Shown here piece after piece: positions 1,523 through 29,057 of a stretch of DNA of 64,000 nt. The notes beneath the pieces are model-generated. The model saw only the letters and a list, made by a program, of their open reading frames with translations, did not search any database and was not told the DNA's origin. How positions within the stretch are numbered: the first letter of the stretch is position 1; every line of letters begins with the position of its first letter. The stretch is from Streptomyces sp. NBC_01283 (GTDB lineage Bacteria > Actinomycetota > Actinomycetes > Streptomycetales > Streptomycetaceae): NCBI RefSeq assembly GCF_041435335.1, contig NZ_CP108430.1, positions 3,764,501 to 3,828,500 of the forward strand. Reading direction: 5' to 3'. Position numbers and translations under genes: made by a program.

Positions 1523-1551
1523 TGTACAGCCGCTACGCGCGTAGATATGCT
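1523..1551 (+). promoter_or_regulatory. deoC promoter with CTACGCGCGTAG operator in the spacer
   Basis: A -35 like TGTACA (1523-1528) and a -10 TATGCT (1546-1551) are separated by exactly 17 bp. The perfect 12-bp palindrome CTACGCGCGTAG (1533-1544) lies inside the spacer. Six bases after the -10 comes G1558, the first base of a GTG codon, so the transcript is probably leaderless. The same palindrome recurs at five other nucleoside-gene promoters in this window. A protein bound here would occlude RNA polymerase. Confidence 0.7.
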
Positions 1552-1557
1552 CCCCTC

Positions 1558-2520
1558 GTGACCATGCCCACTGCACCCGCAACTCCGCACGCACTGACTG
1601 ACGCCACCGCGTCGGACCGCACGCTGCGCCGCTTCCTCCACGGGCTGCCAGGCGTCGACACGGTCGGCCTGGAGGCGCGCGCCTCGGCGCTCGGCACCCG
1701 TTCGATCAAGAGCACGGCGAAGGCGTACGCCATCGACCTCGCCATCTCGATGATCGACCTGACGACGCTGGAGGGCGCCGACACCCCGGGCAAGGTCCGG
1801 GCGCTCGGCGCGAAGGCCGTGAACCCGGATCCGACCGACCGCGGCACGCCGAGGACCGCCGCCGTCTGCGTCTATCCGGACATGGTGGCCACCGCCAAGG
1901 AGACCGTCGGCGACAGCGGCGTCAAGGTCGCCTCCGTCGCGACCGCCTTCCCCGCGGGCCGTGCCGCCATCGACGTGAAGCTCGGCGACGTCCGCGAGGC
2001 CGTCGCGGCGGGTGCCGACGAGATCGACATGGTCATCGACCGCGGCGCCTTCCTCGCGGGTGACTACATGACGGTGTTCGAGCAGATCCGCGCCGTGAAG
2101 GAAGCCTCCGGCGCGGCCCGGCTCAAGGTCATCTTCGAGACCGGTGAGCTGTCCACGTACGACAACATCCGCCGTGCCTCCTGGATCGGCATGCTCGCGG
2201 GTGCGGACTTCATCAAGACCTCGACCGGCAAGGTCGGCGTCAACGCGACCCCCGCGAACACCCTCCTGATGCTGGAAGCCGTGCGCGACTTCCGCGAGCA
2301 GACCGGGGTACAGATCGGCGTGAAGCCCGCGGGCGGCATCCGCACCTCCAAGGATGCGATCAAGTTCCTCGTCCTGGTGAATGAGACCGCGGGCGCGGAC
2401 TGGCTTGACAACCACTGGTTCCGCTTCGGCGCCTCATCGCTCCTCAACGACCTCCTGATGCAGCGCCAGAAGCTGGCCACGGGCCGCTACTCCGGCCCCG
2501 ACTACGTGACGGTGGACTGA
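1558..2520 (+). CDS. deoC: Deoxyribose-phosphate aldolase
   Basis: The enzyme cleaves 2-deoxyribose 5-phosphate to glyceraldehyde 3-phosphate and acetaldehyde in cytosolic deoxynucleoside catabolism. The Schiff-base lysine motif IKTSTGK and the VKPAGGIRT motif carrying the second active-site lysine are both intact. Length is about 320 residues, with an N-terminal extension typical of actinobacterial and eukaryotic-type DeoC. Start choice: GTG 1558 and ATG 1564 are both in frame and neither has a Shine-Dalgarno. The -10 hexamer six bases before 1558 favours a leaderless GTG start. The aldehyde dehydrogenase begins 3 bp downstream, which fits removal of the acetaldehyde product. Confidence 0.95.
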   Translation: MTMPTAPATPHALTDATASDRTLRRFLHGLPGVDTVGLEARASALGTRSIKSTAKAYAIDLAISMIDLTTLEGADTPGKVRALGAKAVNPDPTDRGTPRTAAVCVYPDMVATAKETVGDSGVKVASVATAFPAGRAAIDVKLGDVREAVAAGADEIDMVIDRGAFLAGDYMTVFEQIRAVKEASGAARLKVIFETGELSTYDNIRRASWIGMLAGADFIKTSTGKVGVNATPANTLLMLEAVRDFREQTGVQIGVKPAGGIRTSKDAIKFLVLVNETAGADWLDNHWFRFGASSLLNDLLMQRQKLATGRYSGPDYVTVD

Positions 2521-2523
2521 CCC

Positions 2524-3969
2524 ATGACTTCCACGACTTCAGCTTTTGAGTACGCCCCCGCACCGGAGTCCCGCTCCGTCGTCGACATCGCGCCGTCGTA
2601 CGGCCTGTTCATCGACGGCGAGTTCGTGGAAGCGGCCGACGGCAAGGTCTTCAAGACCGTCTCGCCCTCCACCGAAGAGGTCCTCTCCGAGGTCGCGCAG
2701 GCATCCTCCGAGGACGTCGACCGCGCGGTGAAGGCCGCCCGCAAGGCCTTCGAGAAGTGGTCGGCGCTGCCGGGCGCCGAGCGCGCCAAGTACCTCTTCC
2801 GGATCGCGCGGATCATCCAGGAGCGCAGCCGCGAACTGGCCGTCCTGGAGACGCTCGACAACGGAAAGCCCATCAAGGAGACGCGCGACGCGGACCTCCC
2901 GCTGGTCGCCGCGCACTTCTTCTACTACGCGGGCTGGGCCGACAAGCTCGACCACGCCGGGTACGGCGCGGACCCGCGGCCGCTCGGTGTCGCGGGCCAG
3001 GTCATCCCCTGGAACTTCCCGCTCCTGATGCTGGCCTGGAAGATCGCCCCGGCCCTCGCGACGGGCAACACGGTCGTCCTGAAGCCCGCCGAGACCACTC
3101 CCCTGAGCGCCCTGTTCTTCGCGGACATCTGCCGCCAGGCGGGCCTGCCCAAGGGCGTCGTCAACATCCTTCCCGGGTACGGCGACGCGGGCGCCGCCCT
3201 CACCGCCCACCCGGACGTGAACAAGGTCGCCTTCACCGGCTCGACCGCCGTCGGCAAGGCCATCGCGCGCCAGGTCGCGGGCACGGACAAGAAGGTCACG
3301 CTCGAACTGGGCGGCAAGGGCGCGAACATCGTCTTCGACGACGCCCCCATCGACCAGGCCGTCGAGGGCATCGTCACCGGCATCTTCTTCAACCAGGGCC
3401 AGGTCTGCTGCGCCGGTTCGCGTCTCCTCGTACAGGAGTCGGTCCAGGACGAGGTGCTCGACGCCCTCAAGCGGCGTCTGACGACCCTGCGTCTGGGCGA
3501 CCCGCTGGACAAGAACACGGACATCGGCGCGATCAACTCCGCCGAGCAGCTCGCCCGCATCACCGCGCTCACCGAGACGGGCGAGGCGGAGGGCGCCGAG
3601 CGCTGGTCCGCCCCGTGCGAACTGCCCTCGTCCGGCTACTGGTTCGCGCCGACGCTCTTCACGAACGTCACGCAGGCGCACACCGTCGCCCGCGACGAGA
3701 TCTTCGGCCCGGTGCTCTCGGTCCTCACCTTCCGTACGCCGGAAGAGGCCGTCGCCAAGGCCAACAACACGCAGTACGGCCTCTCCGCCGGCATCTGGAC
3801 GGAGAAGGGCTCGCGCATCCTCGCGGTCGCCGACCGCCTGCGCGCGGGCGTCATCTGGGCCAACACGTTCAACAAGTTCGACCCGACCTCGCCCTTCGGC
3901 GGCTACAAGGAATCGGGTTACGGCCGCGAGGGCGGCCGCCACGGCCTGGAGGCTTACCTCGATGTCTGA
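2524..3969 (+). CDS. Aldehyde dehydrogenase
   Basis: An NAD(P)-dependent aldehyde dehydrogenase of 481 residues, full length for the family. The oxyanion Asn lies in IPWNFP, the general-base Glu in LELGGK and the nucleophilic Cys in GQVCCAGSR; the C-terminal SPFGGYKESG motif is intact. It starts 3 bp after deoC and its stop overlaps the next gene by 8 bp, so the three genes are one operon. Inference from context: it oxidises the acetaldehyde released by DeoC to acetate. The actual substrate cannot be read from the sequence. Confidence 0.92.
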   Translation: MTSTTSAFEYAPAPESRSVVDIAPSYGLFIDGEFVEAADGKVFKTVSPSTEEVLSEVAQASSEDVDRAVKAARKAFEKWSALPGAERAKYLFRIARIIQERSRELAVLETLDNGKPIKETRDADLPLVAAHFFYYAGWADKLDHAGYGADPRPLGVAGQVIPWNFPLLMLAWKIAPALATGNTVVLKPAETTPLSALFFADICRQAGLPKGVVNILPGYGDAGAALTAHPDVNKVAFTGSTAVGKAIARQVAGTDKKVTLELGGKGANIVFDDAPIDQAVEGIVTGIFFNQGQVCCAGSRLLVQESVQDEVLDALKRRLTTLRLGDPLDKNTDIGAINSAEQLARITALTETGEAEGAERWSAPCELPSSGYWFAPTLFTNVTQAHTVARDEIFGPVLSVLTFRTPEEAVAKANNTQYGLSAGIWTEKGSRILAVADRLRAGVIWANTFNKFDPTSPFGGYKESGYGREGGRHGLEAYLDV

Positions 3970-4849
3970 GCGTTTGAGTGTCTTCAAGACCTACAAGCTG
4001 TACGTAGGGGGCAAGTTCCCCCGCAGCGAGAGCGGCCGGGTGTACGAGGTGACCGACTCAAAGGGCAAGTGGCTGGCCAACGCCCCGCTCTCGTCCCGCA
4101 AGGACGCGCGTGACGCGGTGGTCGCCGCGCGCAAGGCGCAGGGCGGCTGGGCGGGCAAGACGGCCTACCTGCGCGGTCAGATCCTCTACCGCGTCGCGGA
4201 GATGCTGGAGGGCCGCAAGGACCAGTTCGTCCGCGAGGTCGCCGAGGCGGAGGGGCTGTCCAAGTCCAAGGCCGCCGCGGTCGTCGACGCGGCGATCGAC
4301 CGCTGGGTCTGGTACGCGGGCTGGACCGACAAGATCGCCCAGATCGTGGGCGGCGGCAACCCGGTCGCGGGCCCCTTCTTCAACCTCTCCTCGCCGGAGC
4401 CGACGGGTGTGGTGACGGTCGTCGCCCCGCAGAAGTCGTCGTTCCTCGGCCTGGTCTCGGTCATCGCCCCGGTGATCGCGACGGGCAACACCGCCGTCGT
4501 GATCGCCAGCGAGGACTCCCCGCTCCCGGCGCTCTCGCTGGGCGAGGTGCTCGCCACCTCCGACCTGCCGGGCGGCGTCGTGAACATCCTGTCCGGCCGT
4601 ACGGCGGAGATCACCCCGTCGCTCGCCGCGCACCAGGACGTGAACGCGATCGACCTCGCGGGCGTCGACGACGACGTACTGGCGAAGGAGCTTGAGGTCG
4701 CCGCGGCGGACAACCTCAAGCGCGTCGTCCGTCCACAGCCTGTGGACTGGTCGGCGGATCCGGGCACGCACCGCCTGACGGCCTTCCTGGAGACCAAGAC
4801 GGTCTGGCACCCCACTGGTTCGCTCGGCGCGTCCGGCTCCTCGTACTGA
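3962..4849 (+). CDS. Aldehyde dehydrogenase-like protein lacking the catalytic domain
   Basis: A protein of 295 residues that follows the first part of the aldehyde dehydrogenase fold: N-terminal region, Rossmann strand, then ATGNTAVV and GGVVNILSG. It ends before the catalytic domain. It contains no cysteine at all, and the conserved PWNFP stretch is replaced by PQKSSF, so it cannot perform the normal thiol-based chemistry. The ATG overlaps the stop of the preceding dehydrogenase by 8 bp, which implies translational coupling. The frame is long and clean, so this looks like a retained pseudoenzyme or partner subunit of its neighbour. A strong terminator follows. Confidence 0.85.
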   Translation: MSERLSVFKTYKLYVGGKFPRSESGRVYEVTDSKGKWLANAPLSSRKDARDAVVAARKAQGGWAGKTAYLRGQILYRVAEMLEGRKDQFVREVAEAEGLSKSKAAAVVDAAIDRWVWYAGWTDKIAQIVGGGNPVAGPFFNLSSPEPTGVVTVVAPQKSSFLGLVSVIAPVIATGNTAVVIASEDSPLPALSLGEVLATSDLPGGVVNILSGRTAEITPSLAAHQDVNAIDLAGVDDDVLAKELEVAAADNLKRVVRPQPVDWSADPGTHRLTAFLETKTVWHPTGSLGASGSSY

Positions 4850-4884
4850 GGCCCGCCCTCACACCGGACCACTCCCCGCACGAC

Positions 4885-4932
4885 GAAGCCCCGGCCCTCC
4901 TCCGTCCAGGAGGGCCGGGGCTTCGCCCTTTT
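4885..4932 (+). terminator. Intrinsic terminator after the deoC operon
   Basis: A perfect 17-bp stem (4885-4901 with 4908-4924) and a 6-base loop are followed by a run of five T at 4928-4932. It lies between the convergent deoC operon and the TetR gene. Confidence 0.9.
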
Positions 4933-4942
4933 TCGGCCCGGC

Positions 4943-5680
4943 TCAGATGCCGAACCGTGCCGCGATCCCGTCCAGGACGCATTCGAGGCCCGTCTCGAAC
5001 ATCCACGTGGCGTCGTCCTTGCGGCGCGAGCGCAGGCCGTAGCGCCGGTAGGTGGGGTAGCGGCCGGTGCCCATGAGGTACGTCATCTGCGGTGCGAGGC
5101 CCATCCGGGTCTCGTCGCCCGACGACCAGCCCTCGGACCGCGTCCACTCCCGCAGGGCCGTCTCGGACGAGGCCGCGCCGTGCGCGTAGGCGCTGACCGT
5201 GCGGAAGGCCGCCATCATCGAGTCCTCGTCGAGCCCGAGGCCGTCGAGCGCCGCCAACTGCCGCTCGGCGATGGCCATCCGGCCCGGCGTGAGCACGAAG
5301 AGAGCCGTGGGCAGCTGACCCACCCACGGGTGGCGCAGCATCATCTCCCGCGTCAGCAGGGCGAAGGCGTGCAGCACCTCACGCCATTCGGTCAGCTCAT
5401 CGGGGATCCGGTGCTCGGCCGCCACCCGCTCGGCCATCAGCGCCCACAGGTCGTCCTTGCCCGAGACGTGCCGGTACGCCGCCATGGGCGCGACCCCCAG
5501 CTCGGTGGCGAGCCGTCGCATGGTGACGGCGGCGAGGCCCTCCGCGTCGGCCACCCGCACCGCCACGGCGCCGATCCGCTCCAGGGACAGCGATGCGCGG
5601 GGCGCGGCGGCCGGCTTATCGAGGCGCTCCCAGAGCGACTTGTCCGGCACCGCCTTGCCGTCCTTCTTCTGGCCAGCCAC
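4943..5680 (-). CDS. TetR family transcriptional regulator
   Basis: A protein of 245 residues. The TetR helix-turn-helix is near residues 50-75 (TMRRLATELGVAPMAAYRHV). The C-terminal ligand domain continues to the end and includes an HPWVGQLP segment typical of the TetR_C class seen beside efflux pumps. I chose GTG 5680 because GAGAGGAG lies 7-8 bases upstream; the frame is open much further but without a usable start. It is divergent from the FMN reductase and MFS genes, and the shared 126-bp gap holds large inverted repeats. It probably represses itself and that operon until a toxic ligand binds. Confidence 0.88.
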   Translation of the reverse strand: MAGQKKDGKAVPDKSLWERLDKPAAAPRASLSLERIGAVAVRVADAEGLAAVTMRRLATELGVAPMAAYRHVSGKDDLWALMAERVAAEHRIPDELTEWREVLHAFALLTREMMLRHPWVGQLPTALFVLTPGRMAIAERQLAALDGLGLDEDSMMAAFRTVSAYAHGAASSETALREWTRSEGWSSGDETRMGLAPQMTYLMGTGRYPTYRRYGLRSRRKDDATWMFETGLECVLDGIAARFGI

Positions 5681-5707
5681 AGCCGGGCTCCTCTCGTCGA
5701 AGGACGA

Positions 5708-5763
5708 GCGTACAACGTATCCCTCTGTAGACGCTGTACACATTGCGCGTGTACGTTGTACGC
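5708..5763. promoter_or_regulatory. Inverted-repeat operator between tetR and the reductase/efflux operon
   Basis: GCGTACAACGTA (5708-5719) is repeated perfectly as its inverse TACGTTGTACGC (5752-5763), with 32 bp between. Inside are further TGTACA/GTGTAC half-sites (GTACAC at 5736-5741, GTGTAC at 5749-5754), and CGTACACAC follows at 5775. The arrangement suggests two or more TetR dimers. It sits in the divergent gap just upstream of the TetR start. Confidence 0.75.
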
Positions 5764-5806
5764 AGCTCGATACGCCGTACACACATCCGCGTTCCAGGGG
5801 GTCCCC

Positions 5807-6424
5807 ATGTCCAGCGCCAGCTCCGGCACCAGTTCCAGCAGCAGCCCTCTCCGCGTGGCCGTCGTCGTCGCCAGCACCCGCGAGGGCCGGTTCGCGCCCG
5901 TCGTCACCCGGTGGCTCACGGGACACCTCGAACAGCGCGACGACATGACCACCGACGTCGTCGACCTCGCCGAGACCCCGCTGCCGACCGTCTTCCCGGC
6001 CTTCGGTCAGCCGCCCGCGCCCGGCACCGAGGAGGCCCTCGCCCTGGTCTCGCCGCGCCTCGCGGCGGCCGACGCGTTCCTCTTCGTCACGCCGGAGTAC
6101 AACCACAGCTTCCCGGCGTCCCTGAAGAACGCCGTCGACTGGCACAACACGCAGTGGCACGGGAAGCCGATCGGCTTCGTCTCCTACGGCGGCCTCTCCG
6201 GCGGCCTGCGCGCGGTGGAGCAACTCCGTCTGGTCATGGCCGAGTTGAATGCCATGACCATCCGCAACACGGTCAGCTTCCACAACGCCTTCGGCAGCTT
6301 CGGCGAGGACGGCGCCGTCGACGACCCCATGGTCGACACCGCGGCCAAGGCGCTCCTCGACCAACTGGCCTGGTGGGCGCACGCCCTGCGGGACGCCAGG
6401 TCCCACACCCCGTACGCCGCCTGA
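5807..6424 (+). CDS. NAD(P)H-dependent FMN reductase
   Basis: A flavodoxin-fold oxidoreductase of 205 residues. After a Ser-rich leader the Rossmann-like strand VAVVVASTREGR starts the fold, and the family motif TPEYNHSFPASLKNA is present with the FMN-contacting GGLSGG further on. Proteins of this group reduce FMN, quinones or azo compounds with NAD(P)H in the cytosol. The ATG follows a GGGGG ribosome site. The MFS pump follows 29 bp downstream, so the two genes probably form a detoxification operon under the divergent TetR. The substrate is unknown. Confidence 0.9.
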   Translation: MSSASSGTSSSSSPLRVAVVVASTREGRFAPVVTRWLTGHLEQRDDMTTDVVDLAETPLPTVFPAFGQPPAPGTEEALALVSPRLAAADAFLFVTPEYNHSFPASLKNAVDWHNTQWHGKPIGFVSYGGLSGGLRAVEQLRLVMAELNAMTIRNTVSFHNAFGSFGEDGAVDDPMVDTAAKALLDQLAWWAHALRDARSHTPYAA

Positions 6425-14751: not shown

Positions 14752-15921
14752 CTACACGTCGACAGAAGCCCTGGTGGAAGCGGTCTGACGGAACAGCCAT
14801 TCGGACTTCAGCTCGGCATATCCGGGCTTGATCACGTCACTGATCATGGCCAGGCGTTCATCGAAAGGAATGAACGCTGATTTCATCGCATTGACTGTGA
14901 ACCACTGCATGTCGTCGAGCGTGTAGCCGAAAGTACCGACCAGGTGCTCGAATTCGAGGCTCATGCTGGTGCCGGACATCAGTCGGTTGTCGGTGTTCAC
15001 CGTGGCCCGGAAGTGCAGCTTGCGGAGCAGCCCGATGGGGTGCTCGGCGTACGAGCTCGCGGCGCCGGTCTGCAGGTTCGAGCTGGGGCACATCTCCAGG
15101 GGGATGCGCTTGTCGCGCACGTAGCTGGCGAGGCGGCCGAGCTTCACCGTGCCGTCGTCGGCGACCTGGATGTCGTCGATGATGCGCACGCCGTGCCCGA
15201 GCCGGTCGGCGCCGCACCACTGCAGGGCCTGCCAGATCGACGGCAGGCCGAAGGCCTCGCCCGCGTGGATGGTGAAGTGGTTGTTCTCGCGCTTGAGGTA
15301 CTCGAAGGCGTCGAGGTGGCGGGTGGGCGGGAAGCCCGCCTCCGCGCCCGCGATGTCGAAGCCGACGACACCGAGATCGCGGTAGCGGTTGGCGAGTTCG
15401 GCGATCTCCAGGGCGCGTGCGGCATGCCGCATGGCGGTGAGCAGCGCGCCCACGCGGATGCGGTGGCCGTTGGCCTTCGCGCGCCGCTCGCCCTCCCGGA
15501 AGCCTTCGTTGACGGCCTCGACGACCTCTTCGAGGGTGAGGCCCTGCTCCAGGTGCTGCTCGGGGGCGTACCGGATCTCGGCGTAGACGACGCCGTCCTC
15601 GGCGAGGTCCTCGGCGCACTCGGCCGCCACGCGCTTGAGGGCGTCCTTCGTCTGCATCACCGCACAGGTGTGCGCGAAGGTCTCCAGATAGCGCGGCAGC
15701 GAACCGGAGTCGGCGGCCTCCCGGAACCAGATCCCCAGCTTGTCGGGGTCGGTCTCGGGCAGACCCTCGTACCCGGACTCGCGGGCGAGGTCGACGATCG
15801 TGCCGGGGCGCAGGCCACCGTCGAGGTGGTCGTGCAGGAGCACCTTCGGGGCGCGGCGGATCTGTTCGGCGCTGGGCGTTTCGCGGTCCGTCTGACCGGC
15901 TTTGGTGGTCTGGCTCGTCAT
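14752..15921 (-). CDS. add: Adenosine deaminase
   Basis: A protein of 389 residues that deaminates adenosine and deoxyadenosine to the inosine forms in the cytosol. The metal-binding HDHLDGG motif is at about residues 30-36, the FTIHAGE motif carries the ligand His and the catalytic Glu, and GHGVRI and NTDNRLMS carry the remaining His and Asp residues. Actinobacterial length is normal. The ATG at 15921 has no ribosome site. Instead a -10 hexamer TAGAGT ends 6 bases upstream, so the mRNA is probably leaderless, as at deoC. The promoter carries the shared palindrome of the nucleoside genes. Confidence 0.95.
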
Positions 15922-15927: not shown

Positions 15928-15956
15928 ACTCTAGCGCCTACGCGCGTAGATCTCAC
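15928..15956 (-). promoter_or_regulatory. add promoter with CTACGCGCGTAG operator in the spacer
   Basis: On the minus strand, -35 GTGAGA (15956-15951) and -10 TAGAGT (15933-15928) are separated by 17 bp. The perfect palindrome CTACGCGCGTAG (15938-15949) lies inside the spacer. The base 7 positions after the -10 is the A of the ATG. This is the same layout as at deoC. Confidence 0.7.
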
Positions 15957-20664: not shown

Positions 20665-21942
20665 CTACGCGATGCGGTCCAGGACGATCGGCGTGGCCGA
20701 GAAGCCCGTGCCCTCGGGGGCGATGTCGAAGGAGCCCTCCACTGCCTGCAGGGCGTACTCGAAGCGCTCCGGGGTGTCCGTGTGCAGGGTCATGAGCGGC
20801 TGGCCCGCGGTGACCCGAGCGCCCGGCTTCGCGTGGAGCTCCACGCCCGCGCCCGCCTGCACCACGTCCTCCTTGCGGGCACGGCCCGCGCCCAGGCGCC
20901 AGGCGGCGACGCCGACGTCGTACGCGTCGAGGCGGGTCAGGACGCCGGACGACGGTGCCGTCACGACGTGCGTCTCGCGGGCCACCGGCAGCGTCGCGTC
21001 CGGGTCGCCGCCCTGCGCGGAGATCATCCGGCGCCAGACATCCATCGCCGAACCGTCGGCCAGCGCCTTCGCCGGGTCGACGTCCTTGAGGCCCGCAGCG
21101 TCCAGCATTTCGCGCGCCAGGGCGAGGGTCAGGTCGACCACGTCCGCCGGGCCGCCGCCCGCGAGGACCTCGACCGACTCGCGGACCTCGAGCGCGTTGC
21201 CCGCCGTCAGGCCGAGCGGCGTGGACATGTCCGTGAGCAGGGCCACCGTGCGTACGCCGTGGTCCGTGCCCAGGCCGACCATCGTGGAGGCCAGCTCGCG
21301 GGCGTCCTCCAGGGTCTTCATGAAGGCGCCGGTGCCGACCTTCACGTCCAGGACCAGCGAGCCCGTACCCTCGGCGATCTTCTTCGACATGATCGAGGAG
21401 GCGATCAGGGGGATGGCCTCCACCGTGCCCGTCACGTCGCGAAGGGCGTACAGCTTCTTGTCCGCGGGGGCCAGGCCGTCGCCCGCGGCGCAGATGACCG
21501 AGCCGACGGAGTCCAGGACCGAGAGCATCTCCTCGTTCGAGAGGAGGGCCTTCCAGCCCGGGATCGACTCCAGCTTGTCCAGGGTGCCGCCGGTGTGGCC
21601 GAGGCCCCGGCCCGAGAGCTGCGGCACCGCAGCGCCGCACGCGGCGACCAGCGGGGCGAGCGGCAGCGTGATCTTGTCGCCGACACCGCCCGTGGAGTGC
21701 TTGTCGGCCGTGGGACGGGACAGGGAGGAGAAGTCCATGCGCTCGCCGCTCGCGATCATCGCGGCGGTCCAGCGGGCGATCTCGCCGCGGTTCATGCCGT
21801 TCAGCAGGATCGCCATGGCGAGGGCGGACATCTGTTCGTCGGCGACCACGCCGCGCGTATAGGCGTCGATGACCCAGTCGATCTGCTCGCCGCTCAGCTC
21901 GCCGCGGTCCCGCTTCGTACGAATCACGGAGATGACGTCCAT
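20665..21942 (-). CDS. deoA: Thymidine phosphorylase
   Basis: A protein of 425 residues that cleaves thymidine and deoxyuridine with phosphate to the base and 2-deoxyribose 1-phosphate. The thymidine/pyrimidine-nucleoside phosphorylase signature GRGLGHTGGTLDKLES is intact, as is the phosphate-site KHSTGGVGDK region. I chose ATG 21942, preceded at 7 bases by GAGGGG; the frame is open to 22020 without a better start. It stands downstream of cdd in the same direction but has its own promoter region with the shared operator, here with one changed base. Confidence 0.95.
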   Translation of the reverse strand: MDVISVIRTKRDRGELSGEQIDWVIDAYTRGVVADEQMSALAMAILLNGMNRGEIARWTAAMIASGERMDFSSLSRPTADKHSTGGVGDKITLPLAPLVAACGAAVPQLSGRGLGHTGGTLDKLESIPGWKALLSNEEMLSVLDSVGSVICAAGDGLAPADKKLYALRDVTGTVEAIPLIASSIMSKKIAEGTGSLVLDVKVGTGAFMKTLEDARELASTMVGLGTDHGVRTVALLTDMSTPLGLTAGNALEVRESVEVLAGGGPADVVDLTLALAREMLDAAGLKDVDPAKALADGSAMDVWRRMISAQGGDPDATLPVARETHVVTAPSSGVLTRLDAYDVGVAAWRLGAGRARKEDVVQAGAGVELHAKPGARVTAGQPLMTLHTDTPERFEYALQAVEGSFDIAPEGTGFSATPIVLDRIA

Positions 21943-21982: not shown

Positions 21983-21994
21983 CTACGCGCATAG
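21983..21994 (-). promoter_or_regulatory. Nucleoside-regulon operator upstream of deoA
   Basis: CTACGCGCATAG on the plus strand is a one-base variant of the perfect palindrome CTACGCGCGTAG. On the minus strand it runs into a -10-like TAGAGT, which shares three bases with the end of the operator. The leader to the deoA ATG is about 40 bases and includes a good ribosome site. Confidence 0.6.
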
Positions 21995-22051: not shown

Positions 22052-22441
22052 TCAGTTGAGGTGCTCCGGCCCGAACGGGTCCGGCAGCATCTCCCCCAGG
22101 GTCCGGATGCCCGCGGCCGTCTCCAGGAGGAGCGTCGCGCCGCCGAACTCGTAGAGCAGCTGGCGGCAGCGGCCGCACGGCATCAGGATCTCGCCCTTGG
22201 CGTCGACGCAGGTGAAGTGCGTCAGACGGCCGCCCCCGGTGAGCTGGAGCTGCGAGACGAGGCCGCACTCGGCGCACAGGCCGAGGCCGTACGAGGCGTT
22301 CTCGACGTTGCAGCCGGAGACCGTGCGGCCGTCGTCCACAAGGGCCGCGGCACCGACCGGGAAGCCTGAGTAGGGCGCGTACGCACGGGACATGGCCTCG
22401 CGCGCAGCATCCCGCAGCGCGTCCCAGTCGGTATCCGTCAC
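22052..22441 (-). CDS. cdd: Cytidine deaminase
   Basis: A protein of 129 residues, the usual size of tetrameric cytidine deaminases. It converts cytidine and deoxycytidine to uridine and deoxyuridine. Zinc-site motifs are CAECGLVSQ (Cys-Ala-Glu) and PCGRC, and NVENASYG binds the substrate sugar. The GTG start at 22441 overlaps the permease stop (GTGA), so it is translationally coupled to the ABC transporter. It feeds imported pyrimidine nucleosides to DeoA. Confidence 0.95.
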   Translation of the reverse strand: MTDTDWDALRDAAREAMSRAYAPYSGFPVGAAALVDDGRTVSGCNVENASYGLGLCAECGLVSQLQLTGGGRLTHFTCVDAKGEILMPCGRCRQLLYEFGGATLLLETAAGIRTLGEMLPDPFGPEHLN

Positions 22442-23697
22442 GTTCGTCCCTTTCGGTAGGGCTGGCCGTCCGCCTTCGGCATCCGAAGGCGCTGGGCGGA
22501 GAGCGAGAGCACGAGCAGCGTGACGACGTACGGCGTCGCGGTGACGACCTGGTTGGGCACCTCGTCGGTCAAGCCGTACCACGCGAACATCAGCGCCGAG
22601 ACGGCCGCGGTGATCGCCGCGGGCACGTAACGCTTGCGCCATACGAGGTAGGCCGCGCCGATGACCAGCAGGATCGCGAGCAGCAGGAGCAGTGCGTGCA
22701 CGTTCGTGCCGCCGCCCCGGAGCTTCAGGCTGTCGGTGTAACCGAACAGTCCGGCACCGAGCGCGAGTCCGCCGGGCATCCAGTTGCCGAAGATCATGGC
22801 GGCGAGGCCGATGTAGCCGCGCCCGCCGGTCTGGCCCTCCAGGTAGATGTTGGAGGCGACCAGGGAGAGGAACGCGCCGCCCAGGCCCGCCAGACCACCG
22901 GAGATGATCACCGCGAGGTACTTGTACTTGTAGACGTTCACGCCGAGGGACTCGGCGGCGACCGGGTTCTCGCCGCAGGAGCGCAGCCGCAGACCGAACG
23001 ACGTGCGCCACAGGACCCACCAGCTCAGCGGCACCATCGCGACGGCGATGACGGTGAGCGGCGAGAGGTCCGTGAACAGGCCGCCGAGCAGGCCCGCGAG
23101 GTCCGAGACGAGGAACCAGTGCTTCTCGTTGAGGTCCTGCAGCCAGTCGGAGAGACCCGGCACGGAGAAGCTGCCCAGCGAGTCCACCGGCGGCGACTGC
23201 TTGGACGTGCCGCCCTCCTTGCCCTCGAAGGCGAAGGTGGAGAGGTAGCGGGTGGCGCCCAGGGCGAGGATGTTGAGGGCCACACCGGAGACGATGTGGT
23301 TGACGTTGAAGGTGACCGTGACGATCGCGTGCAGCAGACCGCCGAGCGCGCCGCCGAGTATGCCGAAGAGGATGCCGACCCACGGGCCCCACTGGTAACC
23401 GGCGAACGCGCCGAACCAGGTGCCGAGGATGAGCATGCCCTCAAGGCCGATGTTGACCACGCCCGCGCGCTCGGCCCACAGGCCGCCGAGGCCCGCGAGG
23501 CCGATCGGCACGGCGAGCCGCAGCGCGGTGGACATCTGCCCGGTGGAGGTGATGCCGTCCGCGCCGGTGATCAGCCGGACCACGGACGTCAGGGCGAGGA
23601 CGCCCGCGATGATCAGCAGGAGGACGGGGAGCGAGATGCGGCGGCGGCCCGGCGCGGGCTGCTTGGCCGGGGGCTTGGCTACGGTTGCCGAGCTCAT
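22438..23697 (-). CDS. Nucleoside ABC transporter permease, second subunit
   Basis: A BPD_transp_2 family permease of 419 residues with about ten hydrophobic segments. The WAERAGVVNIGLEGMLILG motif and SCGENPVAAESLGV coupling loop are characteristic of YufQ/NupQ-type permeases of the BMP-nucleoside transporter class. The ATG at 23697 overlaps the stop of the first permease (ATGA). It forms the membrane channel with that permease. Confidence 0.92.
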   Translation of the reverse strand: MSSATVAKPPAKQPAPGRRRISLPVLLLIIAGVLALTSVVRLITGADGITSTGQMSTALRLAVPIGLAGLGGLWAERAGVVNIGLEGMLILGTWFGAFAGYQWGPWVGILFGILGGALGGLLHAIVTVTFNVNHIVSGVALNILALGATRYLSTFAFEGKEGGTSKQSPPVDSLGSFSVPGLSDWLQDLNEKHWFLVSDLAGLLGGLFTDLSPLTVIAVAMVPLSWWVLWRTSFGLRLRSCGENPVAAESLGVNVYKYKYLAVIISGGLAGLGGAFLSLVASNIYLEGQTGGRGYIGLAAMIFGNWMPGGLALGAGLFGYTDSLKLRGGGTNVHALLLLLAILLVIGAAYLVWRKRYVPAAITAAVSALMFAWYGLTDEVPNQVVTATPYVVTLLVLSLSAQRLRMPKADGQPYRKGRT

Positions 23698-24833
23698 CGG
23701 GCAGCCACCTCCTTCACGGTGTCGTTGTTGCCGTTGCCGTTGGCACGGGCCGCGGCGGCCAGTTCCTCGCCGACGCGCTGCTGCTGGCGGCGGAGCCCCC
23801 AGCGGCGTACGGCCTCGTAGGAGACGACGACCGCGATCACGATGAGGCCCTGCATGATCACCGCGATCTCCTTGTCGTACGCGACCGGGGTCGCGTAGTC
23901 GAGGGCAGGTGACGCCTTGTCGAGGAAGGCGATGAGCAGCGCGGCGAAGGCGATGCCGACCGGGTTGTTGCGGCCGAGCAGGGCGATGGTGATGCCGGTG
24001 AAGCCGAGGCCGGTGGGGAAGCTGAGGCTGTAGGTGTGGACGTCGCCGAGCAGGATCGGCATGCCCGCGAGGCCCGCGACAGCGCCGGAGATCAGCATCG
24101 CGCTGAGCACCATGCGCTTGGCGTTGACGCCGGAGGCCGCGGCGGCCGACTCGGAGGCACCGGTGGCGCGCAGGTCGAAGCCGAAGCGGGTGCGGTTGAG
24201 GATCAGCCAGTACAGGACGCCCGCGAGCGCGGCGATGATCACGAAGCCGTAGATCTCGCCGGACTCGCCCATGCTGATGCCGGGGAACCAGCCGGACTTG
24301 GACATCTCGCCGGTGGTCTGGTTGTTGCCGACCGGGACACCGAAGTTCTCGGTGAGGGTCATGTAGCCGATGACGCTCGTCGCGATGGCGTTGAGCATGA
24401 TCGTCGCGACGACCTCGCTGACCCCGCGGGTGGTCTTGAGGATGCCCGCGATGCCGGCCCAGAAGGCGCCGGTGAGCATGGCGACCAGGATCAGGAGCGG
24501 GATCTGGAGGGGGGCCGGGAGCGCCACGTGCGCGCCGACGACGGCGGTGGCCATCGCGGCGAGGCGGTACTGCCCGTCCACCCCGATGTTGAAGAGGTTC
24601 ATCCGGAAGCCGACGGCGACCGCGAGCGCGGCCAGGTAGTACATGCCGGCCTGGTTGATGATCAGGACCTGGATGTCGGAGAAGGTGGCCTGCTCGAACA
24701 TCAGGCTGTACGGCTCGAACGGGTTCTTGCCCGATGCGATCAGGACGACCGAGGTCAGTGCCACGGCCGCGATGAGTGCGATGACCGGTCCGGCCACCGC
24801 GAGGAGCACGCGCTCCTTGTCGAACTTCTTCAT
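23694..24833 (-). CDS. Nucleoside ABC transporter permease, first subunit
   Basis: A protein of 379 residues, the YufP/NupP-type partner of the second permease. It starts MKKFDKERVL, with membrane helices throughout, the FRMNLFNIGVDGQY motif in the middle and the coupling loop FDLRATGASESAA. It ends in a polar tail rich in Gln and Asn. The ATG overlaps the ATPase stop by 4 bp, and its own stop overlaps the next start by 4 bp. Confidence 0.92.
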   Translation of the reverse strand: MKKFDKERVLLAVAGPVIALIAAVALTSVVLIASGKNPFEPYSLMFEQATFSDIQVLIINQAGMYYLAALAVAVGFRMNLFNIGVDGQYRLAAMATAVVGAHVALPAPLQIPLLILVAMLTGAFWAGIAGILKTTRGVSEVVATIMLNAIATSVIGYMTLTENFGVPVGNNQTTGEMSKSGWFPGISMGESGEIYGFVIIAALAGVLYWLILNRTRFGFDLRATGASESAAAASGVNAKRMVLSAMLISGAVAGLAGMPILLGDVHTYSLSFPTGLGFTGITIALLGRNNPVGIAFAALLIAFLDKASPALDYATPVAYDKEIAVIMQGLIVIAVVVSYEAVRRWGLRRQQQRVGEELAAAARANGNGNNDTVKEVAAR

Positions 24834-26440
24834 CGGGTCTCGTCCTCCTCGGAGCCGTCACCGGACTCGACGTGTTCCAGGTGTCCGGACGCGGCACCGG
24901 TCATCGCCGAACCCAGCTCCTCCGGCGTGATGGTGGCCGGGTCGGCGTCCGCCACGAGCCGTCCGCGGTAGATCACGCGGAGGGTGTCGGAGAGGCCGAT
25001 CAGCTCGTCCAGGTCGGCGGAGATCAGCAGTACGGCGAGTCCCTCGCGGCGGGCCTCGCGGATCTGGTCCCAGATCTGGGCCTGCGCGCCGACGTCCACA
25101 CCGCGGGTGGGGTGGGCGGCGATCAGGAAGCGCGGCTTGTGGCTCATCTCGCGGCCGACGATCAGCTTCTGCTGGTTGCCGCCGGAGAGGGACGCGGCCG
25201 TCACGTCGATGCCCGGGGTGCGCACGTCGTACTGCTCGACGATGCGCCGGGTGTCGGCCTGCGCGCCCTTGGGGTCGAGCCAGAAGCCGCCCTTGCCGCG
25301 GGAGTTGGGCTTCTCGGTGACGTGCCCGAGGATGCGGTTCTCCCAGAGCGGCGACTCCAGGAGGAGGCCGTGGCGGTGGCGGTCCTCGGGGATGTAGCCG
25401 ACGCCCTGCTCGCGGCGGTGGCGCGTGGCCATGGCGGTGATGTCCTGGCCCGCCATACGGATGACGCCGGAGTCGGCGTGCTTGAGGCCGATCAGTGCGT
25501 CGATCAGCTCGGTCTGGCCGTTGCCCTCGACGCCCGCGAGGCCGAGCACTTCGCCCTCGTGGATGGTGAAGGAGATGTCGTCGAGGAGGGCGCGGCCCGA
25601 CTCGCCGTCGGCGAGCAGCTTGAGCGCCTCGACCTCGATCATCGGCCGGTCGGTGACCGTCGACTCGGCGGTCTCCGGCGTCGGCAGCTCGCTGCCGACC
25701 ATCAGCTCGGCGAGCTGGCGCGGGGTCGTCTCGGACGGGACGGCCGTGCCGACCGTCGTGCCGCGCCGGATGACGGTGATGTCGTCGGCCACGGAGAGGA
25801 CTTCGCCCAGCTTGTGGGAGATGAAGATGACGGACAGGCCCTCGGACTTCAGCTCGCGCAGGTTGTCGAAGAGCGCGTCGACCTCCTGCGGCACGAGGAC
25901 CGCGGTCGGCTCGTCCAGGATCAGCGTGGTGGCGCCGCGGTAGAGGACCTTGAGGATCTCCACGCGCTGCCGGTCGGCGACGCCGAGGTCCTCGACCATC
26001 GCGTCGGGGCGCACCCCGAGGCCGTAGCGCTCGGATATCTCCGCGATCTGGCGGCGGGCCGCGGCGCCGATGCCGTGCAGCTTCTCGCTGCCGAGAACGA
26101 TGTTCTCCAGGACCGTGAGCTGGTCGGCGAGCATGAAGTGCTGGTGCACCATGCCGATGCCGCGCACGATGGCGTCGGCGGGGCTGGAGAAGCTGACCTG
26201 CTCGCCGTCGACCGTGATGGTGCCCTCGTCCGGCTTCTGCATGCCGTAGAGGATCTTCATCAGGGTCGACTTGCCCGCGCCGTTCTCACCGACGAGGGCG
26301 TGCACGGTGCCCTTGCGGACGGTCAGGCGGATGTCGTGGTTGGCCACGACGCCCGGGAAGCGCTTGGTGATGCCGTCGAGTTCGACGGCAACGGCCTGGG
26401 CCGTGGTCTTGCCCCTGTCTGGGCTGGTGGACGCGTCGAT
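24830..26440 (-). CDS. Nucleoside ABC transporter ATP-binding protein (two ATPase domains)
   Basis: A tandem-domain ATPase of 536 residues of the RbsA/YufO type. The first domain has Walker A GENGAGKSTL and a degenerate signature around GVADRQRVEIL. The second has a degenerate P-loop GVEGNGQTEL and an intact LSGGNQQK signature. The conserved first strand of the fold (VELDGITKRFPGVVANHD) has no ATG, GTG or TTG in front of it. The only in-frame conventional start, GTG 26347, would remove it. An ATC codon at 26440 has GAGGAG eight bases upstream, so I propose an ATC start. The operon continues with two permeases and cdd. Confidence 0.88.
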   Translation of the reverse strand: MDASTSPDRGKTTAQAVAVELDGITKRFPGVVANHDIRLTVRKGTVHALVGENGAGKSTLMKILYGMQKPDEGTITVDGEQVSFSSPADAIVRGIGMVHQHFMLADQLTVLENIVLGSEKLHGIGAAARRQIAEISERYGLGVRPDAMVEDLGVADRQRVEILKVLYRGATTLILDEPTAVLVPQEVDALFDNLRELKSEGLSVIFISHKLGEVLSVADDITVIRRGTTVGTAVPSETTPRQLAELMVGSELPTPETAESTVTDRPMIEVEALKLLADGESGRALLDDISFTIHEGEVLGLAGVEGNGQTELIDALIGLKHADSGVIRMAGQDITAMATRHRREQGVGYIPEDRHRHGLLLESPLWENRILGHVTEKPNSRGKGGFWLDPKGAQADTRRIVEQYDVRTPGIDVTAASLSGGNQQKLIVGREMSHKPRFLIAAHPTRGVDVGAQAQIWDQIREARREGLAVLLISADLDELIGLSDTLRVIYRGRLVADADPATITPEELGSAMTGAASGHLEHVESGDGSEEDETR

Positions 26441-26454
26441 GGCGCACTCTCCTC
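26438..26454 (-). promoter_or_regulatory. Ribosome site and probable ATC start codon of the ABC ATPase
   Basis: On the minus strand GAGGAG (26454-26449) is followed after eight bases by ATC (26440-26438), in frame with the ATPase. No ATG, GTG or TTG occurs in frame before the conserved N-terminal strand. An out-of-frame GTG lies 7 bases upstream of the ATC. Confidence 0.6.
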
Positions 26455-26478
26455 GGGAATCCTCAGGAAAGGGGCCAC

Positions 26479-26490
26479 CTACGCGCGTAG
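26479..26490 (-). promoter_or_regulatory. Nucleoside-regulon operator upstream of the ABC transporter-cdd operon
   Basis: A perfect CTACGCGCGTAG palindrome lies 39 bases before the proposed ATPase start. It is identical to the sites at deoC and add. No strong -10 hexamer follows it on the minus strand (TAGGTG is the best candidate). Confidence 0.65.
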
Positions 26491-26520
26491 CGCCCCTGGT
26501 TCGACGGGAGTTGAGCAGTC

Positions 26521-26575
26521 GGCCGCGCGAACGGGGCGCGGGGGAACATCGTCCCCCACACCCCGTTTCGCGGCC
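26521..26575 (-). terminator. Terminator after the first BMP lipoprotein gene
   Basis: GGCCGCG and GAACGGGG pair with CCCCGTT and CGCGGCC across one bulge, with an inner GGGGGA/TCCCCC stem. It lies 30 bp beyond the lipoprotein stop, so the ABC operon needs its own promoter. Confidence 0.75.
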
Positions 26576-26604
26576 GTGACTTCGCTGTTGCAGCGCAGTC
26601 GTGG

Positions 26605-27660
26605 CTACAGCGTGGTCTTGACCTTGATCTTGCCGCTGGTGATGTCCTGCTCGGCCTTCTTCAGGGCGGCCTGCAGGTCCTTCATGCTCTTGAACTCGGG
26701 GTTCGAGTCGGCGAGCGCGACGCCACCGGACGCCAGGTCCGCACGGACCACGCCGCCCTTGGCGTTGTCATCCTGGACCGACTTCGTCAGGTTGTACACC
26801 GCTCCGGCGACGTCCTTGGTCGCCGAGGTCAGGATGTACTTCTTGTACTTGGCGAGGGCCTTCTGCTTGTACTGGTCGGAGTCGACACCGATCGCCCAGA
26901 CCTTCTTGGCGGCCGCCGCCTCGATGACGCCCTGACCCGAGAGACCCGCGGCGTGGTAGACCACGTCGGCACCGCCCTCGATCTGGCCGCTGGCGCCCTC
27001 CTTGCCCTTGTCCGGGCTGGAGAAGCCGCCGTCCTCGGCCTTCTCGGTGAGGAACTGGCGCTTGATCTTGACCGACTTGTCGGTGGCCTGGACGCCCTGG
27101 ACGAAGCCGGCCTCGAACTTGCGGATCAGCGGGTTGTCCACACCGCCGATGAAGCCGACGCTCTTCTTCTTGGTGGCCTTGGCCGCGGCGACGCCCGCCA
27201 GGTACGAGGACTGCTCCTCGTTGAAGACCAGGTCCGAGACGTTGTCCGCCTTGATGGTGGCGTCGTCGACGATGCCGAAGGTGACCTTCGGGAACTTCGC
27301 GGCGACCTCCTTCACGGCGGGCGCGTAGGCGTAGCCGATGCCGATCACCGGGTTGTAGCCCTGCTTGGCGAGCTCGGTGAGACGCTGGGCCTTGTCGGCG
27401 TCGGACTCGCCGTCCGTCGGCTCGACGGCCTTCTTGCCGATCTTCAGGTCCTTGGCGGCCTTGTCCATGCCGGCGGTCGCGGCGTCGTTGAAGGACTGGT
27501 CGCCCTTGCCGCCGACGTCGTACGCGATGGCGACGCCCTTGCCCTTGCCGTCGCTCTTGGAGCCTGCGGCGTCGCTGGACGTGCCGCCGCAAGCGGTGGC
27601 GGATACGGCGAGTGCGGCGGTCGCGATGCCCGCTGCGGCGATTCGGGAAACCCGGCGCAT
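26605..27660 (-). CDS. BMP family nucleoside-binding lipoprotein (first copy)
   Basis: A substrate-binding lipoprotein of 351 residues for the ABC transporter downstream. A signal peptide with the lipobox cysteine at about residue 24 (SATAC) is followed by the BMP/PnrA domain: GGKGDQSFND, then NPVIGIGYAYAPAVKEVA, GFIGGVDNPLIRKFEAGF, AAGLSGQGVIEAA and VWAIGVDSDQYK. PnrA-type proteins bind purine nucleosides. I chose ATG 27660 because the signal peptide then has normal length. Its promoter carries the regulon palindrome. A close paralogue lies upstream. Confidence 0.93.
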   Translation of the reverse strand: MRRVSRIAAAGIATAALAVSATACGGTSSDAAGSKSDGKGKGVAIAYDVGGKGDQSFNDAATAGMDKAAKDLKIGKKAVEPTDGESDADKAQRLTELAKQGYNPVIGIGYAYAPAVKEVAAKFPKVTFGIVDDATIKADNVSDLVFNEEQSSYLAGVAAAKATKKKSVGFIGGVDNPLIRKFEAGFVQGVQATDKSVKIKRQFLTEKAEDGGFSSPDKGKEGASGQIEGGADVVYHAAGLSGQGVIEAAAAKKVWAIGVDSDQYKQKALAKYKKYILTSATKDVAGAVYNLTKSVQDDNAKGGVVRADLASGGVALADSNPEFKSMKDLQAALKKAEQDITSGKIKVKTTL

Positions 27661-27735
27661 AGAGAGGAACTCCTTATGTACAAGCAAGCACAAGCACGTA
27701 CGAGCGCCTCACCTGGCGCTGATTTCGCCGCAGCG

Positions 27736-27747
27736 TAACGCGCGTAG
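27736..27747 (-). promoter_or_regulatory. Operator and -10 of the first BMP gene
   Basis: TAACGCGCGTAG on the plus strand keeps the ACGCGCGT core of the regulon palindrome. On the minus strand it runs into a -10 TACGCT (27737-27732), sharing two bases, followed by GAAATCAG where the transcript probably starts. The second BMP gene has the same layout. Confidence 0.6.
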
Positions 27748-27821
27748 ACCTGACATAAGAACCCTTCTGTCCCGTCCGTTATCGAGCTGTGGCCGCGGGG
27801 TTGCGGGAGCGTGTACGCAGT

Positions 27822-27854
27822 GTGGGGCGCCCCGCACACAGCGGGGCGCCCCAC
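27822..27854 (-). terminator. Terminator between the two BMP genes
   Basis: A perfect 14-bp stem (27822-27835 with 27841-27854) and an ACACA loop lie 17 bp beyond the stop of the second copy. The two BMP genes are therefore separate transcription units. Confidence 0.88.
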
Positions 27855-27871
27855 GGGCATCACAGGTACGG

Positions 27872-28987
27872 CTACGGAACGGTCTTGACCGTGACCTTGC
27901 CGTCGATGATGTCCTTCTTGGCCTTCTCCACGGCGGCGACCACGTCCTTCATCGCCGTGTACTTCGGATTCGTGTCGGAGAACCCGACGCGTCCCGACTT
28001 CAGGTCGTAGCGCTGCTCGCCCGTCATCGGCTTGCCCTCGACGACCGACTTGGTGAGGTCGTAGACGGCGCCGCCGACGTCCTTGAGGGCCGAGCCGAGG
28101 ATGTAGTCCTTGTACTTGGCCAGGGCCTTCTGCTTGTACTGGTCGGAGTCGACGCCGATCGCCCACACCTTCTGCGAGCCCGCCTCCTGGATCACGCCCT
28201 GACCGGAGAGCCCCGCCGCGTGGTAGATCACGTCGGCGCCCGACTCGATCTGGCCACTGGCCGCGTTCTGTCCCTTGTCGGGGCTGGAGAAGCCGCCCTC
28301 CTCGGGCTTCTCGGTCAGATACCGCTTCTCGATCTTGATCTTCGGGTCGACGGACTTCACGCCCTGTACGAAGCCGGCCTCAAACTTGTGGATGAGGTTG
28401 ATGTCGACGCCGCCGATGAATCCGACGTGGTCGGCCTTGGTGGCCTTGGCCGCGGCGACACCGGCCAGGTACGAGCCCTGCTCCTCGTGGAAGACGAGGT
28501 CGGCGACGTTGTCCGCCTTCACCGTGTTGTCGTCGATGATGCCGAAGGTGGTCTTCGGGAACTTCTCGGCGGCTTCCTTCACGGCGGGCGCGTAGACGAA
28601 GCCGACGCCGATCACCGGGTTGTAGCCCTGCCGCGCCAGCTGCTCCAGACGCTGCACCTTGTCGGCGCTGGACTCGCCGTCGCCCGGCTCCATGTCGACG
28701 CCGCCGACCTTGAAGTCCTTGCGGGCCTTGGAGTAGCCGGAGTACGCGGCGTCGTTGAAGGACTGGTCGCCCTTGCCGCCGATGTCGTACGCCAGGCCTA
28801 TGCCCTTGCCCTTGTACTCCGAGGACCCCGAGGACTTGTCGTCCTTGTCGTCGTCCTGCGAAGCCTCGTTGCTGGTCTTGCCGCACGCCGAGGCCGCGAG
28901 GGCGAGGGACGCCACCACCACGGCCACTTGGGAAAGCCTCGATCCACGAGATCCGTGGATTCCACGAGATCCACCACGAAGACGCAT
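27872..28987 (-). CDS. BMP family nucleoside-binding lipoprotein (second copy)
   Basis: A protein of 371 residues, paralogous to the gene at 26605-27660 along its whole mature length: IGGKGDQSFND, NPVIGVGFVYAPAVKEAA, GFIGGVDINLIHKFEAGF, AGLSGQGVIQEA and VWAIGVDSDQYK. The N-terminus carries a signal peptide with lipobox cysteine (AASAC) after a longer basic stretch, then a Ser/Asp/Lys-rich linker. I prefer ATG 28987 because AGGGG lies at a suitable distance; a GTG 9 bases earlier lacks room for a ribosome site. The two copies probably bind different nucleosides and share one ABC core. Confidence 0.92.
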   Translation of the reverse strand: MRLRGGSRGIHGSRGSRLSQVAVVVASLALAASACGKTSNEASQDDDKDDKSSGSSEYKGKGIGLAYDIGGKGDQSFNDAAYSGYSKARKDFKVGGVDMEPGDGESSADKVQRLEQLARQGYNPVIGVGFVYAPAVKEAAEKFPKTTFGIIDDNTVKADNVADLVFHEEQGSYLAGVAAAKATKADHVGFIGGVDINLIHKFEAGFVQGVKSVDPKIKIEKRYLTEKPEEGGFSSPDKGQNAASGQIESGADVIYHAAGLSGQGVIQEAGSQKVWAIGVDSDQYKQKALAKYKDYILGSALKDVGGAVYDLTKSVVEGKPMTGEQRYDLKSGRVGFSDTNPKYTAMKDVVAAVEKAKKDIIDGKVTVKTVP

Positions 28988-29045
28988 AGGACGCACCCCT
29001 CACGTTCCCCAAAGCACCGTTGACGGCACTGATTTCGGCGCACAG

Positions 29046-29057
29046 TAACGCGCGTAG
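29046..29057 (-). promoter_or_regulatory. Operator and -10 of the second BMP gene
   Basis: TAACGCGCGTAG on the plus strand is identical to the site of the first copy. On the minus strand it overlaps a -10 TACTGT (29047-29042), and GAAATCAG follows as in the first copy. Confidence 0.6.

What the first reader, a model, noticed from the sequence alone, without database searches (positions are those of the whole stretch)
1533..29057. One palindrome, CTACGCGCGTAG, marks a nucleoside salvage regulon at six promoters
Exact copies lie at deoC (1533-1544), add (15938-15949) and the ABC transporter-cdd operon (26479-26490), a one-base variant at deoA (21983-21994), and core variants TAACGCGCGTAG at both BMP lipoprotein genes (27736-27747, 29046-29057). 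All sites precede genes for nucleoside uptake or breakdown. At five of the six (all but the ABC operon) the site sits at or between the promoter hexamers. Outside these I saw only a half-match (ACGCGCGTAGA at 48363) inside a coding region. No DeoR or LacI gene is in the window, so the regulator must be elsewhere.
Basis: partly seen in the sequence, partly recalled or inferred. Interest (0 to 1): 0.8.

Follow-up and report, generated by a model that had tools for sequence, protein, structure and literature searches.

The report
Streptomyces nucleoside-salvage operator and likely repressor
A 12-letter DNA switch sits in front of the genes with which Streptomyces take up and break down DNA and RNA building blocks; it is almost unchanged across the genus, it also marks genes far from this window, and the protein that probably reads it is encoded just outside the window.

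Summary
The six sites are real and not chance. The exact 12-mer occurs only four times in the 9.6 Mb genome, all within 30.3 kb: three in the window, one 3.8 kb upstream of it at a purine nucleoside phosphorylase gene (PNP). All 188 distinct same-genus genomes scanned hold at least two exact copies; outside the genus copies are rare.

The regulon is larger than reported. Gene-specific variants of the site are conserved at unlinked genes: NCS2 permease, secreted 5'-nucleotidase and secreted nuclease (30 of 30 loci each), NCS1 permease (10 of 20), second adenosine deaminase (7 of 13). At seven targets a -10 hexamer stands at a fixed distance, as expected for a promoter-blocking repressor.

A DeoR-family gene lies about 6 kb upstream of the window, 2.3 kb from the PNP site. 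It is present at 87-100% identity in 132 of 132 same-genus genomes; the 15 others of the order have only distant relatives or none. I propose it as the repressor, released by a pentose phosphate. Binding is not shown. It works like E. coli DeoR but scores below that family's cut-off. New member of a known kind.

The parts
1533..1544 (.). operator CTACGCGCGTAG of deoC; -10 TATGCT at 1546-1551
   Evidence: exact in 50 of 51 named loci holding deoC, the miss having its deoC start beyond the contig end; -10 at offset 13 in 51 of 51
1558..2520 (+). deoC, deoxyribose-phosphate aldolase, GTG start, looks leaderless
   Evidence: TIGR00126 181 bits, cut-off 117
15938..15949 (.). operator CTACGCGCGTAG of add; -10 TAGAGT at 15933-15928, minus strand
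   Evidence: exact at the cluster add in 17 of 17 loci; -10 at offset 16 in 16 of 17
14752..15921 (-). add, adenosine deaminase, looks leaderless
   Evidence: NF006847 643 bits, cut-off 412
21983..21994 (.). operator variant CTACGCGCATAG of deoA; -10 TAGAGT at 21985-21980, minus strand, overlaps it
   Evidence: present in 2 of 6 genomes read
20665..21942 (-). deoA, thymidine phosphorylase
   Evidence: NF004490 642 bits, cut-off 269
22052..22438 (-). cdd, cytidine deaminase (last part of the open frame 22052-23392; start not fixed)
   Evidence: NF004064 182 bits, cut-off 74, residues 319-445 of that frame
22438..23697 (-). ABC transporter permease (start not fixed)
   Evidence: PF02653
23694..24833 (-). 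ABC transporter permease
   Evidence: PF02653
24830..26347 (-). ABC transporter ATPase
   Evidence: PF00005
26479..26490 (.). operator CTACGCGCGTAG between a BMP gene and the ABC ATPase gene
   Evidence: exact in 7 of 7 genomes read
26605..27660 (-). BMP/PnrA-type substrate-binding lipoprotein
   Evidence: PF02608
27736..27747 (-). operator, reads CTACGCGCGTTA toward the BMP gene; -10 TACGCT at 27737-27732 overlaps its end
   Evidence: 9 of 9 BMP sites read share the letters and the -10 at offset 10
27872..28996 (-). second BMP/PnrA-type substrate-binding lipoprotein
   Evidence: PF02608
29046..29057 (-). operator, reads CTACGCGCGTTA toward the second BMP gene; -10 TACTGT at 29047-29042 overlaps its end

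Best explanation
The palindrome is the operator of one transcription factor that controls nucleoside scavenging in Streptomyces. The most likely factor is the DeoR-family protein encoded just upstream of the window (genome C1 3757393-3758370, minus strand; window coordinates about -7107 to -6130). As a repressor dimer it would sit between or on the promoter hexamers and keep RNA polymerase out. When nucleosides are taken up and split to (deoxy)ribose phosphates, such a phosphate would bind its C-terminal sensor domain and release it. The response would run from breaking down outside nucleic acids (nuclease, 5'-nucleotidase), through uptake (BMP-ABC transporter, permeases), to breakdown (add, cdd, PNP, deoA, deoC). 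Shown here: sites, conservation, promoter geometry, gene families, co-occurrence and linkage with the DeoR gene. Inferred: that this protein binds the site, that it represses, and what the inducer is.
For: Four exact copies in the genome, all at nucleoside genes in 30.3 kb. At least 2 exact copies in 61 of 61 and 132 of 132 same-genus genomes. PNP site exact in 76 of 76 named loci holding PNP, deoC in 50 of 51. The 12 bases do not vary at PNP (76), deoC (51) and add (17) while flanks do (2.00 bits per base against 1.15, 1.05 and 0.79). Unlinked targets with fixed variants: NCS2 permease 30 of 30 and 5'-nucleotidase 30 of 30 loci, nuclease 30 of 30. -10 at a fixed distance: PNP 76 of 76, deoC 51 of 51, add 16 of 17, 5'-nucleotidase 30 of 30, BMP 9 of 9, deoA 2 of 2, NCS1 9 of 10. 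DeoR gene: 132 of 132 same-genus genomes at 87-100% identity; of 15 other genomes of the order, 14 have best E-values of only about 1e-43 to 1e-40 (the one shown is 41% identical) and 1 has none. Median identity 98.5% in 80 loci against 91% for PNP and 87% for deoC. PNP site about 2.2-3.0 kb from the DeoR start in all 76 loci that reach PNP. HTH_DeoR and DeoRC domains. The only PDB match at E up to 0.01 is the deoxyribose operon repressor 7l6l. That DeoRC domains sense sugar phosphates is recalled.
Against: No binding or expression data. The DeoR gene's own upstream region has no site with up to 1 mismatch in any of 80 loci. Linkage and genus restriction would also fit another genus-wide factor. 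NCS2 and nuclease sites have no -10 at one fixed distance. NCS1 and the second add carry the site in only about half of the loci. A network inferred from expression data puts SCO4920, which I take to be this protein by recalled gene order, in a module with bldN and conservon cvn9; the passages seen name no nucleoside genes (PMC3224704). The structure model failed (mean pLDDT 46).
Confidence: 0.7

Rival explanations
1. The operator is real but is read by another factor, for example an unlinked LacI-, GntR- or TetR-type protein conserved in the genus; the DeoR gene is only a neighbour.
For: A 12-base palindrome with a central CG suits several families (recalled). No autoregulatory site at the DeoR gene. 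I did not screen the other regulators of the genome.
Against: The convergent TetR gene was found in only 39 loci, at 66-85% identity, where 71 of 80 have more than 1.5 kb on that side. The LysR gene beside add is 72-84% identical in the clusters read, and LysR sites look different (recalled). Among the sites read, no regulator gene stood out as carrying the site in front of it, except a CGNR zinc-finger gene in one genome (L330).
Confidence: 0.22
2. The DeoR protein binds the site but activates, or only fine-tunes, so that another regulator holds the genes off.
For: At PNP the site lies at about -37 to -26 of the likely start, near the -35; the DeoR family has some activators (NCBIfam names an L-fucose operon activator, NF007720).
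Against: At deoC, add, BMP, deoA and NCS1 the site lies in the spacer or on the -10, and in the second add and many nuclease genes at or behind the start codon, where repression is the usual outcome.
Confidence: 0.06
3. Chance or a composition effect of GC-rich DNA.
For: Matches with mismatches are not in excess in the window or genome.
Against: Conservation in 188 genomes, fixed -10 distances and unlinked orthologous sites.
Confidence: 0.01

Closest known systems
E. coli DeoR (with CytR) nucleoside regulon
   Same: DeoR-family protein; targets of the same kind (deoC, deoA, purine nucleoside phosphorylase, uptake); inducer deoxyribose-5-phosphate (regulon and inducer recalled).
   Different: The Streptomyces protein scores 73.6 bits on the NCBIfam E. 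coli DeoR model, cut-off 244. The operator is 12 bp and GC-rich, not the recalled 16 bp AT-rich one. Targets are separate promoters and include a secreted nuclease and 5'-nucleotidase.
B. subtilis DeoR (SorC family) dra-nupC-pdp regulon
   Same: Control of deoxynucleoside breakdown and uptake (recalled).
   Different: Different protein family: the candidate has HTH_DeoR and DeoRC, and no sugar-binding SorC domain was among its Pfam hits.
SdrA, DeoR-family regulator of S. avermitilis (Ulanova et al. 2013)
   Same: DeoR family in the same genus, reported to affect development and antibiotic production (title seen in reference lists; paper not held).
   Different: Whether SdrA is this protein is recalled as likely (SAV3339) and not tested; no nucleoside operator is known to me for it.

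Membership tests
DeoR/GlpR family of regulators (candidate protein) | N-terminal HTH_DeoR and C-terminal DeoRC sensor domain | tested here: met
   PF08220 52.3 bits (cut-off 21), PF00455 173.4 bits (cut-off 31.8)
E. coli DeoR equivalog | score above the curated cut-off of NF007961 | tested here: not met
   73.6 bits against 244
E. coli DeoR equivalog | 16 bp AT-rich operator (recalled) | tested here: not met
   the conserved element is the 12 bp CTACGCGCGTAG
DeoR-type nucleoside repressor system | targets are nucleoside uptake and breakdown genes | tested here: met
   families of targets; sites
DeoR-type nucleoside repressor system | operator placed to block the promoter | tested here: met
   fixed -10 distance at 7 of the 10 site sets scanned; not at NCS2, nuclease or the separate amidase element; ABC site not scanned
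DeoR-type nucleoside repressor system | the regulator binds the operator | not testable with these tools
   only linkage and co-occurrence
DeoR-type nucleoside repressor system | release by a (deoxy)ribose phosphate | not testable with these tools
   inferred from domain and pathway
Bacillus DeoR (SorC family) | SorC-type sugar-binding domain | tested here: not met
   not among the Pfam hits; DeoRC found instead

The most novel reading that the evidence does not exclude
One genus-wide repressor joins the whole path from outside nucleic acid to central carbon metabolism, and possibly purine synthesis (purSQL), with operator letters fixed promoter by promoter to grade the response: perfect palindromes at the enzymes, altered right arms at uptake and outside digestion. 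If the protein is SdrA, that regulator's reported effect on development and antibiotics could come from recycling the colony's own DNA.
Probability: 0.3. Interest if true: 0.7.

Novelty: new member of a known kind. Interest (0 to 1): 0.5.

Why it matters
It gives a testable function and DNA site to a very conserved Streptomyces regulator that the held papers seen mention only in passing, and predicts how these bacteria feed on DNA and RNA, perhaps including that of their own dying cells. It also offers a nucleoside-responsive operator. One gel shift and one gene deletion would test most of it.

Tried and rejected
Chance: rejected on the conservation data. TetR and LysR neighbours: weaker candidates. 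Autoregulation of the DeoR gene: looked for, not found. Sites outside the genus: 10 of 268 out-of-genus genomes in the class scan have an exact copy. I read 8 sites in 6 of those 10 (L101-L109; four genomes not read) and saw no nucleoside-salvage gene directly beside any; in G286, which has three copies, an adenosine-deaminase-like reading frame lies about 12 kb from one site and IMP-dehydrogenase-like and phosphoribosyltransferase-like frames 2-4 kb from another (my reading of the translations). Of 15 out-of-genus genomes in the order scan, 3 have one copy: two lie inside a frame that reads as IMP dehydrogenase, one beside nothing I recognise. Structure model: too poor to use. Rfam: nothing in window or L005.

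Papers: ten searches ran. Two papers name SCO4920; I saw passages of both and neither passage set mentions nucleosides (PMC3224704, PMC4848846). Of three papers citing SdrA I saw only reference-list passages. The five papers and the two I saw as listings only. Only open-licence papers are held, so this is not proof that nothing is in print.

Selection: of 18 one-mismatch sites outside the window I tested conservation of 5, picked by likely function (L007, L011, L016, L018, L019). The purS one (L015) has only genome G076 as second witness. The other 12 were not tested. In some searches 41 genomes were searched, but loci were capped at 30 per call, best matches first, so '30 of 30' means the 30 best loci. 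Off-cluster exact sites were picked from truncated listings.
Full report
OBSERVATION. In the whole 9.59 Mb genome the exact 12-mer occurs four times: the three in the window and one at C1 3760694, 3.8 kb upstream of the window start (window is C1 3764501-3828500), before a purine nucleoside phosphorylase gene. Matches with up to two mismatches are not in clear excess in the window (9 against 5.1 expected; 8 of 100 shuffles reach 9), and matches with up to one mismatch are not in excess in the genome (24 against 53 for the reversed pattern). The finding rests on the exact copies, their places and their conservation.

CONSERVATION IN THE GENUS. Exact copies number 2 to 6 in each of 61 genomes drawn from the genus and at least 2 in each of 132, together 188 distinct genomes by handle; the reversed control has 0 to 3. 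Outside the genus 3 of 15 genomes of the order have one copy and 10 of 268 of the class have one to three. In eight genomes whose clusters I read (this one and seven others) PNP, deoC and add have the exact site in 8 of 8; the ABC gene in 7 of 7 genomes that cover it (one of them, G018, read only there); 9 of 9 BMP sites read CTACGCGCGTTA toward the gene; deoA has a site in 2 of 6 (tallied by hand from the listings). In 80 named loci, the nearest relatives, the PNP site is exact in 76 of 76 that reach PNP and the deoC site in 50 of 51, the miss having its deoC start beyond the contig end.

UNLINKED TARGETS. I tested five one-mismatch sites outside the window, picked by likely function, in 41 genomes each, reading the 30 best loci (20 for NCS1). 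NCS2-type permease (PF00860): 30 of 30, CTACGCGCG[G/C/A]AG. Secreted 5'-nucleotidase (PF00149, PF02872): 29 of 30 with one mismatch and 1 with two, nearly all CTACGCGCGTTG; exact in genome G093 by my reading of the translated gene. NCS1 permease (PF02133): 10 of 20 loci within two mismatches. Secreted nuclease-like protein (GmrSD C-terminal domain PF07510): CTACGCGCGTCG in 27 of 30, CTACGCGCGTCA in 3. There the codons TAC GCG CGT are the only ones used in 29 of 29 in-register loci while neighbouring codons vary, so the DNA itself is kept; but only 19 of 30 loci have ATG at the start I assumed, so in others the site may precede the true start. The fifth site, at an amidase, is described under SIDE FINDING. 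A second, unlinked adenosine deaminase occurs in 13 of 41 genomes with the site over codons 3 to 7 in 7 of 13 (4 exact, 3 CTACGCGCATAG); of the other 6, one has a one-mismatch site at -115, one a two-mismatch site at -188 and 4 have none. Of 12 exact sites outside the cluster that I noticed in truncated listings and read, 6 are at this second add, 1 at the 5'-nucleotidase, 1 before purS (PF02700, L332) and 4 are unassigned. At purS of this genome the same place holds CTACGCGAGTAG (L015).

ANATOMY. A TANNNT -10 hexamer stands at one fixed offset from the first base of the site: PNP 24 (76 of 76), deoC 13 (51 of 51), add 16 (16 of 17), 5'-nucleotidase 16 (30 of 30), BMP 10 (9 of 9), deoA 9 (2 of 2), NCS1 9 (9 of 10); not at NCS2, nuclease or the amidase element. 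At BMP, deoA and NCS1 the hexamer overlaps the site, which may explain why an arm differs there. PNP, deoC and add look leaderless, 6 to 7 bases from -10 to start codon. The half CTACGCGCG is intact at PNP, deoC, add, ABC, BMP, NCS2, 5'-nucleotidase and nuclease sites; deoA and NCS1 each change one base of it when read toward the gene. Each promoter has its own near-fixed right arm. I read this as graded affinity (inference).

REGULATOR. A DeoR-family gene lies at C1 3757393-3758370, minus strand, about 6 kb outside the window and 2.3 kb from the PNP site. An ortholog of 87-100% identity is in 132 of 132 same-genus genomes; of 15 others of the order, 14 have only distant matches (best E about 1e-43 to 1e-40) and 1 none. 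In 80 loci its median identity is 98.5%, above PNP (91%), deoC (87%) and the convergent TetR gene (76%, found in 39 loci where 71 have room). Its upstream region is itself conserved but lacks the operator. This is guilt by association: strong, not proof.

MECHANISM. Best reading: a repressor on the promoter, released by a pentose phosphate made from nucleosides. Sites, places and pathway are shown; binding, sign and inducer are inferred from the family.

COMPARISON. It works like the E. coli DeoR/CytR system (recalled). The protein belongs to the DeoR family by domains but not to the E. coli DeoR equivalog. That it is SCO4920 in S. coelicolor rests on recalled gene order. Passages of two held papers mention SCO4920: one builds an expression-based module with bldN around it, the other lists it in a table of regulators in a glucose study; no nucleoside link in either set of passages. 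SdrA of S. avermitilis may be the same protein; this is recalled and the paper is not held.

SIDE FINDING. Before a pyrimidine-base catabolism operon (amidase PF00795, class III aminotransferase, dihydropyrimidinase TIGR02033 above cut-off) 29 of 30 loci carry CTACG[G/T]GCGTAG and none the nucleoside palindrome. It may mark a sister regulator, or a second reading by the same one.

Noticed in passing
L401 12148-12159 (G000:C1:2140147); L371-L400: Element CTACG[G/T]GCGTAG at -42 to -56 of the amidase gene of a pyrimidine-base catabolism operon in 29 of 30 loci, never CTACGCGCGTAG. CTACGGGCGTAG also precedes an aldehyde dehydrogenase gene (L022, G000:C1:7234837) and CTACGTGCGTAG lies at L012.
   Followed up: partly
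L005 13372-13470, minus strand: About 100 bases before the DeoR gene are strongly conserved, with TTCGGC-N7-GCTGAA, TATACCAC and a possible leaderless -10 TACTGT, but no nucleoside operator. Something else may control this regulator.
   Followed up: partly
L332 2023-2034 (G076); L015 1501 (G000:C1:4831880): Operator before purS-purQ-purL: exact in G076, CTACGCGAGTAG here, followed in both by a similar AT-rich stretch. Possible link to purine synthesis; only two genomes seen.
   Followed up: partly
L059 2002, L330 1943, L334 1971, L335 1971: Four exact operator copies, one genome each, beside genes without evident nucleoside role (a CGNR zinc-finger protein at L330, an HAD-type phosphatase at L334).
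   Followed up: no
window 29163-30437: M20-family amidohydrolase gene, next to the BMP genes also in the five other genomes read that cover this place; role in nucleoside use unknown.
   Followed up: no
L300-L312: Second adenosine deaminase in 13 of 41 genomes, with the operator laid over its first codons in 7 of 13.
   Followed up: partly
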